The notes below the pieces were generated by a model, which had not been told where the DNA came from, did no database searches, and saw nothing but the letters and a program-made list of their open reading frames with translations. A program made the position numbers and the translations under genes. From Clavelina lepadiformis (lineage: Eukaryota > Chordata > Ascidiacea > Aplousobranchia > Clavelinidae), in the NCBI RefSeq assembly GCF_947623445.1, contig NC_135244.1, positions 8,928,001-8,992,000 of the forward strand: 64,000 bases of DNA. Reading direction: 5' to 3'. This document shows, in pieces, positions 15,710 through 25,219 of the stretch. Positions within the stretch are counted from its first letter, which is position 1; every line of letters begins with the position of its first letter.

Positions 15710-18700
15710 ATGTTAAAACAAGGTAGTAAAAGTTTGAAGAGCATTGGGATATCAAGAGAAACTGAAAACAATCAAGGAACAGTTAACGGATGCACTGGTT
15801 TATATGTTTTGCCAAAATGGCCTTTCCTTTATTCCAACCTTGCCACTCAGTATTCAACAAACAATGGGGCAGTATTTTCAAAAACTCATATTCTTGGAAT
15901 TCTCACTCCAAGTCAAACATCTGCACGTAAACTAGTGAAATACATCTTTTATGATGTAAAACTTTCTGGTAAAAAAAGTCTGAAACATAATGCTGGCAAT
16001 CATAGATCTTCTATAAAGCAAAGAGTTCACAGTTTCGGCAATCAATTAAACACTAAGGACAATGGTGATTCACTGAACATTGTTGGTTTGCGGCACAATC
16101 AACCACTTAAAAGACAAGGTTTAAAACGAAAATTAGAAACTATGTCCGCAGACATAGAAAAATCTAAAACTAAACGGAAATGTGAAACTCTGTGTTGTGT
16201 TTCCAGAGAAACCTCGTCAGTTGTAACCAGTAAAGAGCTTGGTGGTACAGAGTTATCACAGTCTAAATTCTTGCAAGTGTTTGGGCCATACATTGACATA
16301 AATCTAGCATCCAGAGAAGAAAATTCAGGGCAAAGTATAGAGGAAAACAAACCATCAAGAAAGCTTTCGTTTATGCAAGCGTTCGGAGGATTGTTGTCGG
16401 ACCAAGGGCAGACAGTTAAAGAATTCCCAACTGATGGCAAAAGAAACAACTCCGCCAACTTGCAAATAACAAGACATTTAAGAAAGGCAATAAATGTATG
16501 TCACAAAATATTGCACAATACAAAAAAGAACAAAATTCATCATCTTCTACACAACTATTGTCCATTGACCAAAGCCAAAGTTAATGTTGTCAATATAGGT
16601 AATATGCAGATTGCTTCAGAACAGTCACATGTGCAGTATTCACAGGTAACAAATTTCATGTAACGTACTTATGCCATAAAATAGTCACACAAAATCAAAA
16701 ATGAATATGTAGCTTAAATACACACTTTTTTAGATATGTCAGTATAGTTCTTTATTAAACCAAATAGACAATCACAGTTCTATTAAACCCAATTTAATTT
16801 TATTTTTTCAGGTTTATTTATTTCTTCGTGCAGTTATTTCTCATACTTTTCCTTGTGAGCTAGTTTGGGGCAGTAAGAAAAACATGGACGCTTTTTTGCA
16901 TGGTTTAAAACGTTTTCTTTATAGCCGAAGGTTTGATAAAATGACAGTTGAAGATTTAACTTGCAAGATGGAAATTTCTGAACTTGGTTGGCTGAAAGGT
17001 GTGCAGCATGTTTTTTTCATTGAGTTTATTACTCGGCACATACAAAAGGAATAGAACCTGTTCTTGATATTCTGTACTCTATCATCAACATAACACATTG
17101 CACAGTAGTTAAGGTATTTGACACTGTTTTTATTTGGTTCATGTCCTGTTCGTTTTACCTTATAGCTAGGACCCGCAAAAGTCAATAAAGTCAAAAATTT
17201 TTAAGGACCTCGTCTGACCACGAATCAAAGAATAAAGTTGTTTTCAGCACCTACGGGATTGTTTCTAAGAAGTTTATAGGTCAAAATAAAGTCAAAATTT
17301 ACAATAAAGTCAAAATTTTCAATAAAGTCAAAATTTGTCAAATTATGGCTTTTGACAAAGTTTTTGTGTTTCTCGAGAGTAATTTTTGTAAAAATCCTCG
17401 TGGAAGCATTGTAAATCAGGAACTGCGACACAATTAAACCATATTAACCCATAAAAGCAGGAAATAAGTCACAATGCCCACTTGGATCAGCAGTAACTTT
17501 TATCGCAAATTGTCCATTGTTTAATCATTGTTACGTATTTAAATAACTCTTACAAAACACTTCCTCTTCATAAACGTGGTCTTTTCGAAGATCAACAGTT
17601 TGGATTTTAGGAATAGCCTACTGACATTCTGTAATACAAAAATGCCTAAGCAAGCTAAATCGTCTTCAGCAAAAGTTAGACAGATTTGTCGAGATTTTTC
17701 TGATGAATTTAATGCAACTCCCGGGGGTGATTTAAGGTGCAATTTTTGCGAGGTTATAGTGAAGTGCGATAAAAAGTATTTTGTTGAAGGCCACAGGAAA
17801 AGTAAACACCATCAAGCTGGATTGGAGCAACAACAAGCATTCCCTGTTTAATTTGCTGTTTATTAGAATTTACCATGCGGAGAAAATCGAGGCAAAGTGC
17901 CCTTTTCACAAAGACAAAATAAAAACAAGCTACCTAAATCTATCGCCAAAGAACACGACGCACTTTTTATAATCAATATAACACCTTGACTTTTCGACAA
18001 AATATTACGTTTGGGTAACTGGAGGAAGAACTGTGGCCTCTACAAATAAGCAATTTCGTTAGGTCAAAATAAAGTCAAAATTCGATAAAAATAAAGTCAA
18101 AAAAATTTTTTTTTAGGTCAAAATAAAAATGGCCCTACTTATAGCTTAATAAAAGTTTTTCTTGTTTGTAGGTCCCAATGCTAGAGAATCTTTTTATAAA
18201 TTTATAAAGTGGTTGATGCATGAATTCATATTTGTCGTCTTAAAAAGGTTGTTTTATGTGACTGAGCATGCAAACTACAGAAACAGGTAAATGATACAAT
18301 ATATACTTGTAGTTGGTTTTTATATCTCACTATATGACTATAACGATGAGTTGATAAGAGATTTCTGGTTTTAGTTTCAATTATGAAAAAAAGGTTAAAA
18401 TTGAAATTGTTTTGAAGTACCACAAAGCTTGCTAAAAGCAATACAATTGCAGATACACACATGATTATATTTAAGCTGACTAGCCTTAGTATATAATTCT
18501 GTTCATATTTGTTTGTTTTCTCGTGTTTATTTCAAAAATTGCTTCAGTGAAGGCATATAGAAAACCTCTAACTAGTATGTAAAGGTGTGTATGGTTTTTA
18601 ATAAGCTTTTAGTATGAGTTATGATCCTGATTTATGGAATCAAAAATATTTGTATAATTCCTGTATGATATTGATAACATATAGTTCTCTTTTCTGATCA

Positions 18701-21700
18701 CCTTTTTAGGTTATTTTATTTTCGAGGTGAAGTTTGGGCTAAGCTTTCAAAAATGGAAATAATTAGCTTAATTGAGAAGGGCATGTGGTCACAAATAGAA
18801 AGTAGCTCACGGTTTCAAGCACGATTTTCTGTTAGATTCATTCCAAAGTCTTCTGGATTAAGACCAATAATGAAATGTGCAAATACTAACCGAAACTCCC
18901 AAAACAGGGTAAGTAGAAACTTGTTTTACTTATGCTGCTGTTTTAGCAATAGTAATAAATATTAATATATTACACTAGTGTATTACTGCATCACTTAAAC
19001 CACCTGAGATTATACAAACCACTTTTTACATACTTTGTCAATATGCACCACAGAGAAGAGGTTTTGAAAAGTTTTTTAAAAACACTAGATAAACACAAGG
19101 CCTCTTTATCTATCTAATTTTTTGGAAAGTGGACAAATGGTTAATGTTTGAATGAAAACGAATTGCAACTATTGCTGTTAATATGCGTTATATTTCCTTC
19201 ATATGAGGAAGGCCTGTCATAAAACAACTAATACAACTCCCTAAAAACAAACTAAAACGTTTCAGATTCCTTCAAATGATATTTTGAAAATTTTTAAATT
19301 TATCTGCAACAAATATCCTCGCATCATAGGATGTGCAACACAGGGAAGGAATGACATACACGTCAGGTGGAAAGTATTTTGGAAAATTTGCGAACACAAA
19401 CTGAAGCTGATGCAGTTGGAGCAAATTCCTTTGTTTTATGTCAAGGTCAGATCAGGAATTTGTGATGAATTTTTATGAGACTTTAATTTGTTGTTAAACT
19501 GTTGTAGGTGGATATTAGTCGATGTTTTGACACAATTCCTGTGGAAGGTTTGCTTCAAATTATTAGAGATGTTCTTGACAGGTACCAAACTGATTACCAT
19601 AACGTAGGAATTTTCACATATTAATGCAGCAGAATTTGTCTATAGTGGCACATCAAACATCTGATTATCTTCAGCAAGGATAATAGTTTGGTACACAATG
19701 AATACTGTCCTCTACCTTAAAATGAATACCGGTCCTGTTGTTATAAGCAATTTGCCATTACATGCATAGCAGATCTCTGCTTTTGTGTCAAGTTTGGAAG
19801 AAAATTTTGTGTAAAGTCTGTAAAGATAATAGACATTGAACATAAATAATAATTCATATAACAATCTACACTAATTCGATGGGTAATAAGAAAATGATTA
19901 TGACTAAGCTCATTATATGAATATATCTATCTCATAAGACAAAATCTCAACTATTTTAAAAGCATTTTTATCTTAAAATAAATATATCAAGAGAGGTTTT
20001 TGTCAAACCATCAAAAAAGTTGGTAAGCCTATCCTTAGCTATTACGGTAATTTTTACACCTGCCTTTTTTGTAGATGTGCAAATCTGAATATTGCCTCCA
20101 TTACAAAGGTAAGGAAATAATGTCATAGTAAGTGTTTCAGTGTAAGTAAGTTTCTCATGAAAGCAAGATAATAATTGGCAGTAGTGGACTGGTTGCTAAG
20201 ATAGTTCAATACTAATATTTCAAGCGGGATTACTTCATAATATTGTTTGCGGTTTAAAAATCTTTGAAGTCCTGAGTAAAATTCTGGTCATAGTCAGGTG
20301 AGGCAAAATAGGGATGGGCCGATACGAATTCAAACTCGAATAAGTTTGTCCAATGTCGTCTATGTGAAAGATTTATGTATGCTATCGATGGCGAACCGAA
20401 TACAGTATCAATGCACTTATAAATTCATCATCTTTGATATCAGATGGTGATCTAGTTCCCTGGTTAAGATAAGGAGTGAGTCAACTAGCAACGAAGTTTA
20501 GTTTAATAACGATTTTGCTTTCTCCATCACATTTTAAACATTACACATTGTTTGGGTTTGCACGAACCCCAATAAAATCTTTCTCAGGGCACATCCCTAA
20601 TACAAGTATATGTCTATGGAAGGGATAAACGCATTTTATTGGTTTGTAATATGTAGCAAGCCTTGTTTTTTTTTTATTCCCAACATAGACACTTTTATTC
20701 CATTTCACTGTTTATTATCATCTAGCTAGTATCACATTGTAGGCGAGGAGATCTTCGTTAAAACTAGTGTGGTGTAGCTCTTGGTCAGTGTAAACAAACT
20801 TAAACGTATTTCAACTTCAAGTACTTTTGATAATAATCTAAAAATATTTCAATTAACTATAGTTTATTAATGTTTACAAATTTACTAGGGGTATAAATAT
20901 GTGTCGGAGTGCAGCAATGCAATTTACTCCTCTCTGAAATACTCTCTGCGTAATGTTGTTCTGCATACCGGAGGACAGGTAATTATTTGGCTGCTTCCTA
21001 ATGCATTTTATTAAATGTACTGTTTAGCTTTTGATTGCAAGAATCACATTTACCTTAAAATATTTATTGTCTCCTGTAGGAGTTTACCAAATTAAAAGGA
21101 ATCCCACAGGGATGGTGCCTGTCTTCTATGCTTTGTGACATTTTTTATGGTGATTTAGAAACGCACTGTTTGCATGATTTCATGAATGGTATGTACAGCT
21201 TATATCAACCTTCCTTTGTTTTACCAAAAAAGCTGTATATATCAAACTCGGTCTATAAAATATTTCTTATGTTGTAAAAAGCAATAGAGCATCATCTTAT
21301 ATTGTCCAAGCAACAATCTTACTGTATATGATATTGTTTATTATTCGTGTGCTTTTCAGATTGCAGCTCCAATGACCTGAATTGTAGCCAAAATCTAAAA
21401 CTTCACACTTTAATGAGGTTTATGGATGATTTTCTGTTTGTTTCCACTTCAGAAGAGGAAGCAATGCAGTTTTTAAGGTTTTTATTTGATGGGACTTGTA
21501 AAGTCTCTGAAGATATAAAGTGCACTAACATACTTATTGACACTGTCAAAAAAAACTTTGCAGAAAGATGTACTTTGGTTTTAAAGAATATGGTTGTGAA
21601 ATCAATTCAAAGAAGACATGCACTAACTTTTTGGTACCTCAAAACTGTCTCCAGATGAAAAATGGTATGAAATGAGAAAACCAATTTTGTGAAGTTTCAC

Positions 21701-24700
21701 CCTCAAGTTACATAAAGTTATAGGGAGTGATGGTCAAAGTTGTCACATAAGTTACTTAGTAGTAGAAGTATTGCTGTTTAAAACTATAAAGTAGCACATT
21801 AAAAACTTCTAAAGTAAGAAGTAGTTGGGGAAGTAGTCACCGATCGAAAGTATAAGGTTGTAAAAGCACAAATTACCAAGAGCTTGTTAAAAGCAATACA
21901 AGTACAGGAAAATACAAATTGTTATGAAGCTAATAGTTTCAGACATACTTTTGTCCTTCGTTAAAGCACTGTTACGTGAAAATCAAGTTGTAAACTGTAT
22001 ATAAACATCTTGTGCAGATGTGATAGCCAAGGCAAATTACTATAAATTATTTCTCTTCGAACGAAAAACTACTTTTAACCTACTCAAGTATGTTACTTTG
22101 GTGTCAAAACTACTTAAGTGAAAGTAGAGGTATGCATGACAAAACCACTTAAGTAGCCAAAGTAGAAGAAATTTACATAAAGTAAAACTACTTCGTTACT
22201 GACCACCACTGTTTATAGGAGACAAAATTGCTGTACTGGACACTTGTGATGATTTTCCTTGGTTCGGACTCCGCTTGCCCACTACTGTAGTTCCTGTTTT
22301 GAGTTGCCCAATAGCACATAAAACATTACTTGTTAAACTAAGAGGTAAGTGTTTAGTTTTTTGTTTTAGTTATTGAGTCATTCCATGTATAATCAACCAG
22401 GCCCTGTAACCACTACTCTTGGATTTTGATAATTTCAATATATGTTATAGACCTTGGAAAAAGCCGAAGATTAAAAAAAAAATTTTGAAAATATCTCCAG
22501 GCGTTTTCGAGTTATTTAAATTTGAAATTTTCGCCACACGATGGCGTTTGGCTAGTGAGCACTGGTCACGCTTTATGATTTTCTTTAATATCTTTATTTC
22601 TGAAGGTAGAATAATGAAACAAATGTTGAATTTACCATTTTTGGGGTCAAGGAATTCATTTAAGCACATAAAAAACCTATATCACACCTCCTTCATGGAG
22701 TAAATTAAGTTTTTTCATTGATGTCAAAGTTCAAGTTTACGATGCAATTACAAAAATAGCAATCGCATTGGAAACATAATTTTTGCACTTTTGTGTAGCA
22801 TGGTTCATGTATTTTCATGTATCCAAAAATTGGAAACTTGTTTTTTGTCCTTTAGGAATAAAGTTGGTTTTAACAGCAAGCACTATTTTTAAGATTCTTA
22901 TAAGATATAAAATGCAGATTTGAGCAATATCGTATAACTGGTCATGCATATATGCAAGGTTGCAATTCCAAGGCACCAACTGCTAGTGTTTAAAGATTAT
23001 TCACCAAAAACATTAATTACTGCCTGCTAAAGGTGCACTCTGAGAGAGGTTACAGTAACTTTGAGTTCCTTTTTGAACTTCAATTTTGCCTACTCCTATT
23101 TTGATTCTTATTATTTTATTATTATTATTCTTATTATTAGTTGTTATTATTATTATTCTTATTATTAGCAGTTGGTGCCTTGGAATTGCATGACCAGTTA
23201 TACGATATTGCTCAAATCTGCATTTTATATCTTATAAGAATCTTAAAAATAGTGCTTGCTGTTAAAACCAACTTTATTCCTAAAGGACAAAAAACAAGTT
23301 TCCAATTTTTGGATACATGAAAATACATGAACCATGCTACACAAAAGTGCAAAAATTATGTTTCCAATGCGATTGCTATTTTTGTAATTGCATCGTAAAC
23401 TTGAACTTTGACATTAATTAAAAAACTTAATTTACTCCATGAAGGAGGTGTGATATAGGTTTTTTATGTGCTTAAATGAATTCCTTGACCCCAAAAATGG
23501 TAAATTCAACATTTGTTTCATTATTCTACCTTCAGAAATAAAGATATTAAAGAAAATCATAAAGCGTGACCAGTGCTCACTAGCCAAACGCCATCGTGTG
23601 GCGAAAATTTCAAATTTGAATAACTCGAAAACGCCTGGAGATATTTTCAAAATTTTTTTTTTAATCTTCGGCTTTTTCCAAGGTCTATAACATATATTGA
23701 ATTTATCAAAATCCAAGAGTAGTGGTTACAAATTTAAAAAAAATTGGTTGATTATACATGGAATGACTCTATTGCTAGGACAAGTTTATTGGCAAGAAAA
23801 TCGTAGATACAGAGTTTCATGGTGGTAGGGCCAATATTAACAAAATTATAAAACCAATAACAAAGCAATTTTTTACATTAAGCAATAAAGTAGCAATAAT
23901 CAAGCAGCGAGGAACAATTGCCAATTTTAAGACATAGACTTCCCAGTGCAACGAAAAAAACTTCCATACAGTACCATATGGTTAAAGTTTAAATTCTACT
24001 AAATCTCTTTTGCAGGCAATCATAATAAATGTGGAGTAGCGCTAGATCTGTCAAGATACTCAGAGTTAGAAAGTATTCGAGATTGCATTTCAGTAAATCT
24101 TGCTGCCCCCTATCACAAGACGTCATTGACTTTGGGGAGAAGCATGCGTCTGAGGGTTTATGCCATCTGCTTTGACATCAAGGTAAAGAAAATGATTTCC
24201 CAAACCAATATTAGCTGCATAGGTTGTGCATATTTATATTGAAGCAACAAAATATCGCATGAAAAGGTTTACGTTATAACCTGATTCAAGTTATTTTCTA
24301 CTTGTTGTCTCATAATCGACATCGTAAGCTGGTTCCACAATTCATTTGTGTGTTGTTTAAAATTGTGACAGAGTTTTGATAGATATACCCTCAGTTTTGC
24401 CAATTATATCACACAAAAGTTATATAGAGGTTTTCGAACCATTTTATGTTGTTTAGTTAATTTAGTTGACATATCTAACCACTTCTTTTACTCAAAGGTA
24501 AACAGCCACATCCGTATTGTGAGAAATTTGTATGAAATAGCATGCCTTGCTGCATTACAGTGGCTTGCACATGATTTATCTCACAGGCCAGAAAAACGAG
24601 CAAAATACTCCAGTGAAATTGTTTTAAGCATCCAACGCCTTGCAGCTGTATTTGTCCTGACGGCCATCCGAAAAAAGCTTCCAGGTCATTGTAGTTATGT

Positions 24701-25219
24701 GTGGAATATTACATTCTAATTTGGCACAGAGTATGTTGCAGTAAACCTTGTTGTTTTTTCCTCTGTAGGTCAAAAATTTCCAAATCGTTCAGTTACAGTG
24801 TGGGTATTCTTCAAGGCCTTTCTAAAAAAGATGCTACAGTACCATTCTGTCTACAAACACACATGTAAAAGGTTTCAGCAAGGTGTTTTGTAATTATATT
24901 TATAAATGTGTGTTCATAACTTAATGTCATTTAAAAAGAAATTGGATAGGTGGCAGAATAGTTAAAATGTATTTCATTTTGAAAATATTTTATGTTCATT
25001 TTACTTCAATGTAGAAGTTGTGTTAAATCTGCACCAGAGAATTTACTGACCATGAAGTTACATTTTTTCCCTGAAGCATTATATGATGTTTTTACAGCCA
25101 TCCAGCGACATGAGAAAAAACTCACTACAGCTAAGAACTGGAAATATATGAAGAAGATATTATATGCAGCAGTTGCTTGTAATCCAAAAAGTTTGTGTCA
25201 CTTGTCAGTTCGAATTTAA
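15710..25219 (+). CDS. TERT: Telomerase reverse transcriptase catalytic subunit
   Basis: Adds telomere repeats by copying the telomerase RNA. Sixteen coding exons keep phase throughout: 15710-16645, 16812-16998, 18172-18286, 18710-18908, 19266-19445, 19508-19581, 20075-20108, 20889-20978, 21080-21188, 21360-21477, 21564-21664, 22219-22344, 24016-24182, 24498-24684, 24769-24871, 25015-25219; about 976 residues. RNA-binding domain: SQVYLFLRAVIS, LVWGSKKN, DLTCKMEISELGWLK; motif T: RLFYVTEHANYRNRLFYFRG; motif 1: RFIPKSSGLRPI; motif A: VDISRCFDTIP (Asp 541); B': GIPQGWCLSSMLC; C: RFMDDFLFV (Asp 664, 665); D: EYGCEINSKKTCTNF; E: FPWFGLRL; then a thumb-like C-terminal domain. Exon 1 aligns only with the linker and CP region (SQTSARKLVKYIF; HNYCPL), so the N-terminal TEN domain is absent from this model. 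The region between motifs A and B' is short. Start ATG is tentative. Confidence 0.96.
17167..18137 (+). mobile_element. hAT element with CGGBP1-like finger, TERT intron 2
   Basis: Bounded by perfect 8-bp duplications CTTATAGC (17159-17166 and 18138-18145), as hAT transposases make. Ends TAGGACCCGC and, reverse-complemented, TAGGGCCATT. Both ends carry clustered AGGTCAAAA and AATAAAGTCAAAA words in direct and inverted order. The middle holds a zinc-finger reading frame (17576-17851) but no catalytic domain, so the element is non-autonomous. The right duplication lies 26 bases before the TERT exon 3 acceptor. Confidence 0.88.
17576..17851 (+). CDS. CGGBP1-like BED/C2H2 zinc-finger frame inside hAT element
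   Basis: A 91-residue frame; a likelier start is the internal ATG at 17642 (MPKQAKSSSAKVRQICRDF). The core DLRCNFCEVIVKCDKKYF then VEGHRKSKHHQAGLEQ follows the C-x2-C ... H-x4/5-H pattern and the wording of CGGBP1 (recalled: LFCTSCNVVL ... DHLKSKTH), a vertebrate DNA-binding protein of hAT origin. The helical C-terminal half of CGGBP1 is not apparent; the frame ends soon after the finger. It may be the leftover N-terminal BED domain of a hAT transposase or a short DNA-binding protein. Expression is unknown. The related element at 30300-30928 has a decayed counterpart on its minus strand. Confidence 0.6.
   Translation: MVFSKINSLDFRNSLLTFCNTKMPKQAKSSSAKVRQICRDFSDEFNATPGGDLRCNFCEVIVKCDKKYFVEGHRKSKHHQAGLEQQQAFPV
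20309..20599. mobile_element. Possible MITE in TERT intron 7
   Basis: Left end TAGGGATGGGCCGATACGAA; reverse complement of right end TAGGGATGTGCCCTGAG. The short matching termini look like those of hAT MITEs, but no 8-bp duplication flanks them (at most AAT), so ends may be eroded. It sits in the intron 20109-20888. Confidence 0.45.
21725..22211. mobile_element. hAT MITE inserted at TERT 3' splice site
   Basis: Left end GAGTGATGGTCAAAG; reverse complement of right end CAGTGGTGGTCAGTAACG. Inner ends also match (ACATAAGTTACTTAGTAGTA against AAATTTCTTCTACTTTGGCT and further AGTAGTTTTACTTT words), the layout of CAGTGNTGG-type hAT MITEs. The flanks are GTTATAGG (21717-21724) and TTTATAGG (22212-22219), an 8-bp duplication with one change. 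The right copy contains the AG acceptor and the first base of TERT exon 12. Confidence 0.8.
22375..23769. repeat. 1.4-kb palindrome (fold-back element) in TERT intron 12
   Basis: Two arms of about 605 bases (22375-22985 and 23166-23769) are near-identical in inverted orientation around a loop of about 180 bases. Each arm holds the same 94-codon frame, one on each strand, differing at a single residue, so only a handful of bases separate the arms. Outer ends read GAGTCATTCCATGTATAATC on both strands and are flanked by TATT on each side, a possible 4-bp target duplication. The left arm has an 11-base insertion near its inner end; the right arm has extra A/T-rich bases near its outer end. No transposase frame is recognisable. 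Confidence 0.88.
23103..23166. repeat. TTATTA-rich microsatellite in palindrome loop
   Basis: Imperfect run of TTATTATTA and ATTCTTATTATT units in the loop between the palindrome arms. Confidence 0.75.

What the first reader, a model, noticed from the sequence alone, without database searches (positions are those of the whole stretch)
21665..22219. A hAT MITE landed on a TERT 3' splice site and duplicated it
The element 21725-22211 is flanked by GTTATAGG and TTTATAGG. The right copy holds the acceptor AG and the first base of exon 12 (motif E). Removing the element and one target copy leaves a 59-base intron ending in a normal TATAG acceptor. The gene therefore carries the acceptor twice: use of the left copy (AG at 21722-21723) would exonise the MITE and soon hit a stop, while the right copy depends on transposon-derived sequence for its branch site and pyrimidine tract. 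It is a clean example of a transposon enlarging an intron without breaking the frame, in an essential single-copy-type gene, and could create a null TERT splice form.
Basis: partly seen in the sequence, partly recalled or inferred. Interest (0 to 1): 0.72.

Follow-up and report, generated by a model that had tools for sequence, protein, structure and literature searches.

The report
Old transposon duplicated a telomerase-gene splice site
A long-dead mobile DNA element sits exactly on a splice site of what is probably a sea squirt's telomerase gene, leaving two copies of that site, and the end of the element appears to supply the branch signal that lets the gene still be read: a tidy, mostly ordinary case of a tolerated insertion.

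Summary
A 487-base hAT-type MITE (21725-22211) sits between GTTATAGG and TTTATAGG, turning a 59-base TERT intron into 554 bases and leaving the acceptor TATAG twice. Eight of 40 other copies fetched show their own 8-bp TSDs at these ends. The junction 21664/22219 gives a protein that aligns to human TERT through FPWFG. The insertion looks old: 10.4% from the family majority, terminal branch 0.129, so an empty site on another haplotype is unlikely. The five following exons stayed open where 3-4 stops are expected by neutral change, so they are still reached, presumably through the right acceptor. The MITE's terminal repeat carries TACTGAC, its A 16 bases before the end of that AG, the maximum of my branch score; 0.6% of sampled window AGs equal it. 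This may be why the insertion was survivable. Use of the left acceptor (23 residues, then a stop) is untested, and a small PWM does not rate it weaker. No transcripts or second haplotype could be read. Ordinary in kind, a neat example; organism probably Clavelina lepadiformis, from chromosome lengths only.

The parts
21564..21664 (+). TERT exon upstream of the intron (motif D: FKEYGCEINSKKTCTNF), ends ATGAAAAATG, phase 1
21665..22218 (+). TERT intron, now 554 bp; donor ATG|GTATGA
21665..21723 (+). 59-bp pre-insertion intron (with the left copy of the acceptor)
21717..21724 (+). left target-site duplication GTTATAGG with the left acceptor AG (21722-21723)
21725..22211 (.). hAT-type MITE, 487 bp
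22197..22203 (+). TACTGAC branch-like motif in the right terminal repeat, A at 22202, 16 nt before the last base of the right AG, no AG between
   Evidence: scoring weights are my own
22212..22219 (+). right target-site duplication TTTATAGG: acceptor AG (22217-22218) plus first base of the next exon
22219..22344 (+). TERT exon with motif E (GDKIAVLDTCDDFPWFGLRL...)
22018..22129 (+). possible cryptic exon inside the MITE (acceptor 22017, donor 22130); stop-containing; prediction only

Best explanation
A non-autonomous hAT-type element inserted long ago into the 3' splice site of a 59-base TERT intron. The 8-bp target duplication copied the acceptor TATAG|G, so the exon kept an intact acceptor directly after the element. 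The element's terminal repeat then supplied a strong branch-site sequence (TACTGAC) close before that acceptor and a C-rich stretch between them, so splicing from the old donor to the right acceptor still removes the whole element and restores the TERT frame. Shown: element, duplication, frame, divergence from its family, open downstream exons. Inferred: the age as fixed and old, that the right acceptor is the main one, and that TACTGAC is its branch site. Unknown: whether the left acceptor makes a minor truncated form.
For: Boundaries, TIRs and TSDs. Alignment to human TERT across the junction. Copy divergence 0.104 from the leave-one-out majority and terminal branch 0.129. The five exons from 22219 on are open: simulated mean 3.2-4.1 stops, P(no stop) 0.036 at d=0.10 and 0.012 at d=0.13, with P 0.185 and 0.108 that the 16 splice-site bases of the next four introns also survive. 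TACTGAC scores 9.5 of 9.5, equalled by 0.6% of the AGs sampled (every fifth in the window), against 7.4 for the left acceptor's best site, equalled by 61.5%. The exact right end TTACTGACCACCACTG occurs 16 times in the genome against 1 for the reversed control, so the motif came with the family.
Against: No transcript data. The acceptor PWM (20 introns of this window) rates the left AG higher than the right in 2 of 3 window sizes. The unchanged right 34 bases of this copy are not exceptional: 3 of 20 other copies reaching that end show no change there (two of them not over all 34 columns), and 8 of 443 such windows in this copy are free of changes, so selection on the branch site is not demonstrated. 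The branch scoring used weights of my own after a recalled general consensus. The survival argument ignores indels and takes the divergence from the family as the age of this insertion.
Confidence: 0.75

Rival explanations
1. Both acceptors are used: the old branch region still drives splicing to the left AG (21723), giving a TERT that ends 23 residues after the motif D exon, as a regulatory or noisy null form.
For: The left AG is intact, and its PWM score (7.0 over -15..+1) lies within the range of 20 known acceptors (0.6-13.5) and above the right one in 2 of 3 window sizes. The isoform meets a stop after 23 residues.
Against: Its best branch-like site is weak (7.4; 61.5% of sampled AGs do as well) and has 2 AGs between it and the acceptor; the second has 1. 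The insertion looks long tolerated in a gene kept open. No transcripts were seen.
Confidence: 0.3
2. A cryptic stop-containing exon inside the MITE is sometimes included (acceptor 22017 or 21723 to donor 22130), acting as a poison exon.
For: Donor GAG|GTATGCAT scores 8.6, at or above 12 of 18 known donors, and 1% of window GTs score as well. The family majority at this place reads AAGTACCC, so the good donor probably arose in this copy. Acceptor 22017 scores within the known range. The 112-nt exon holds an in-frame stop.
Against: Prediction from a small PWM; among many AG and GT pairs some will score well by chance.
Confidence: 0.1
3. The intron itself was created by the element (an introner-like gain).
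For: Human TERT has no intron here by my recalled exon boundaries (not from a call), so the intron is not one of the shared ones.
Against: Without element and one TSD, 59 bases remain that run GT...AG and are not a multiple of three; read through, the frame soon stops (MKNGMK then a stop). An intron already existed.
Confidence: 0.03

Closest known systems
hAT-superfamily MITEs (8-bp TSD, short TIRs beginning CAG; recalled)
   Same: 8-bp TSD, TIR CAGTGGTGGTCA, sub-kilobase, no long frame, dispersed copies
   Different: No autonomous parent identified: none of 12 hAT transposase loci examined (3.2 kb each, of 150 matches listed) holds paired ends with a TSD. The first base of the left end here is G, not C.
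Introners (TE-derived introns that can take a splice site from the TSD; passages of PMC9860276 seen)
   Same: A cut-and-paste element whose TSD supplies a splice site and which is spliced out without changing the mRNA
   Different: Here an older intron was enlarged, not created; the donor is the old one.
Ds and other hAT elements whose termini act as splice sites (recalled; no paper read)
   Same: Terminal repeats of a hAT element taking part in splicing
   Different: Here the terminus would supply a branch site, and the AG comes from the duplicated host site.
Alternative splicing of animal TERT (passages and one section of PMC5405514 seen)
   Same: TERT splice forms are common and poorly conserved between animals
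   Different: No alternative form is shown here; only a second acceptor in the DNA.

Membership tests
hAT-type MITE | 8-bp target-site duplication | tested here: met
   7 of 8 here; 8 of 40 other copies with <=1 mismatch at the same boundaries
hAT-type MITE | short terminal inverted repeats beginning CAG (motif recalled) | tested here: met
   Right end CAGTGGTGGTCA; left end GAGTGATGGTCA, 2 mismatches of 12, so the left one begins GAG here
hAT-type MITE | dispersed multi-copy, non-coding | tested here: met
   Matches on C1-C6, C8 and C9, and on C7 by the 16-base end; the longest stop-to-stop frames listed inside it are 48 aa (+) and 51 aa (-)
hAT-type MITE | shares ends with an autonomous hAT transposon | tested here: inconclusive
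   hAT transposase domains abound (150 matches listed), but 0 of 12 loci examined carry matching paired ends within their 3.2 kb
Introner | creates a new intron at the insertion site | tested here: not met
   A 59-base GT...AG intron remains without the element
TERT gene | RT motifs and TERT RNA-binding domain | tested here: met
   (Telomerase_RBD 2.3e-27, RVT_1 3.5e-12; TERT_C 5e-05 is below its curated cut-off)

The most novel reading that the evidence does not exclude
The terminal repeat of this hAT family is a portable branch site: in sense orientation it places TACTGAC with an AG-free C-rich tract at a fixed distance from whatever follows, so an insertion at a 3' splice site is self-repairing. 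TERT would be one survivor of a general rule by which such elements can land on acceptors without killing the gene.
Probability: 0.3. Interest if true: 0.5.

Novelty: new member of a known kind. Interest (0 to 1): 0.3.

Why it matters
It is a small, exact record of how a gene survives a hit on a splice site: the target duplication saves the acceptor and the transposon end can supply the branch site. The idea can be tested in public data by asking whether copies of this family ending in TTACTGACCACCACTG are over-represented directly upstream of exons. For TERT itself it would matter only if the left acceptor makes a real truncated form.

Tried and rejected
Second haplotype or second gene copy: none seen in the held assembly. 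Autonomous parent of the MITE: not found among the 12 transposase loci examined. Selection on the right end: suggestive but not significant. Full TERT model: my first chaining broke frame in the region 19582-20978; a revised donor after 19603 put the first part in frame, and an enumeration between about 20100 and 20900 gave no clear missing exon, left open. The acceptor at 20914 was dropped from the PWM as uncertain (21 acceptors, 20). Donor scores had one site out of register; one search repeats them with 18 sites in register (one neighbouring-gene donor was not found and left out). Paper searches: of those about this case (20: 20 of 43 papers listed; 40: 7 of 7; 41 and 42: none held the terms; 49: 8 of 14; 50: 1) I saw titles and starts of abstracts only, and none of these describes it; the library is open-access only, so this is weak evidence of absence. 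Passages were seen of PMC10884593, PMC9860276 and PMC5405514, and one section of the last.

Full report
The window lies in an assembly of 209,060,895 bases in 95 contigs. Its nine largest contigs (C1-C6, C8, C9; C7) agree within about 0.01 Mb with the nine chromosome lengths of Clavelina lepadiformis in the passages of PMC10884593 that I saw (28.79, 26.54, 25.74, 25.07, 24.62, 20.77, 20.45, 19.51, 15.73 Mb). That paper gives 210.1 Mb in 102 scaffolds, slightly more than is held here. The name rests on these lengths only.

The gene is TERT. Exons 20916-25219 translate to 392 residues that match human TERT (7qxa_A, E 1.7e-15, residues 17-159 of the piece, through GIPQG, MDDF, motif D and FPWFG). 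Pfam gives RVT_1 (3.5e-12) and TERT_C (5e-05, below its curated cut-off), and the upstream exons give Telomerase_RBD (2.3e-27). The alignment runs on through the junction 21664/22219, with a 3-residue gap beside it, so the right acceptor gives the expected protein.

The element: 21725-22211 between GTTATAGG and TTTATAGG. Two random local 8-mers agree this well with probability 0.0009. The family is dispersed: 54 matching pieces, this copy included, a lower bound, and 16 exact copies of the right terminal 16 bases against 1 for the reversed control. Eight of 40 other copies fetched have an 8-bp TSD with at most 1 mismatch at the same ends, and five more have 2 mismatches; for the rest the scan gave nothing convincing and I did not examine them one by one. 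Twelve of the 40 (L033-L044) were fetched because they bear the exact right end and the others because they resemble the window copy, so the 40 are not a random sample.

Age: 33 of the 40 copies spanned more than 330 bases of the query and were aligned. The window copy differs from the leave-one-out majority at 10.4% of 405 columns and has a terminal branch of 0.129. Other copies range from 7.4% to 17.6% and from 0.072 to 0.241, except five from a repeat region on C4 with branches of 0.006-0.019. It therefore looks like an old burst, and this insertion is likely fixed.

Downstream selection: the 262 codons of exons 12-16 before the terminal stop hold no stop. Under neutral substitution of 0.10-0.13 per site the mean is 3.2-4.1 stops and the chance of none 0.036-0.012, before asking that the splice-site bases of the next four introns survive (0.185-0.108) and ignoring indels. 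So this part of TERT has probably stayed in use since the insertion, which requires splicing into exon 12.

Mechanism: for the right AG the old branch region is now some 500 bases away with many AGs between, so a branch site in the element is expected. TACTGAC (22197-22203) has its A 16 bases before the end of the AG, with no AG between, and reaches the maximum of my branch score, as 0.6% of sampled window AGs do; the 13 other TERT acceptors scored have a median of 7.9 and a best of 9.1. It lies in the family's terminal repeat, so the element brought it. The acceptor PWM is against a simple story: over -15..+1 the right AG scores 3.0 (2 of 20 known acceptors are as low or lower) and the left 7.0 (9 of 20); over -10..+1 they are 6.5 and 5.9; over -20..+1 they are 2.2 and 5.2. 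Seven of the 20 acceptors come from a neighbouring minus-strand gene that I took for SHMT from recall. Conservation of the right end is not significant.

Consequence of the left acceptor: 23 residues after the motif D exon and then a stop, so no motif E or C-terminal extension. A donor at 22130 that is better than the family majority could also make a stop-containing exon. Both are predictions.

Comparison: this is a hAT-type MITE by TSD and TIR, not an introner, since a 59-base intron remains without it. Human TERT has no intron at this place by my recalled exon boundaries. [quoted passage not shown] Two other elements swell this gene's introns: a 971-bp element with a perfect 8-bp TSD in intron 2, ending 34 bases before that acceptor, and a 1.4-kb foldback in the next intron. 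An insertion near the 3' end of a TERT intron is thus not unique to the finding.

Verdict: real and correctly described, ordinary in kind. The added point is the branch-like motif in the transposon end, which makes the tolerated insertion intelligible and testable.

Noticed in passing
17167-18137: A 971-bp element (TIR TAGGACC/TAGGGCC, perfect 8-bp TSD CTTATAGC, so perhaps hAT) in TERT intron 2, ending 34 bases before its acceptor; the listed long copies elsewhere are 94-98% identical (40 of 309 candidates scored), so it is probably young. Without it the intron would be 194 bp.
   Followed up: partly
22375-23769: A 1,395-bp foldback element with 544-bp arms, 99% complementary, in the next TERT intron; TATT on both sides; several relatives elsewhere lie as arm pairs about 3 kb apart.
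   Followed up: partly
22120-22140: In this MITE copy the bases AGAGGTATGC make a strong donor where the family majority reads AGAAGTACCC.
   Followed up: partly
G000:C4 about 0.8-3.46 Mb (L020, L048, L049, L050, L052 among others): Many MITE copies, all on one strand, spread over 2.7 Mb of one contig; the five aligned have very short terminal branches, as if the MITE rides in a large amplified repeat.
   Followed up: no
20109-20915: The TERT model breaks frame here; an exon is probably missing from my model.
   Followed up: partly
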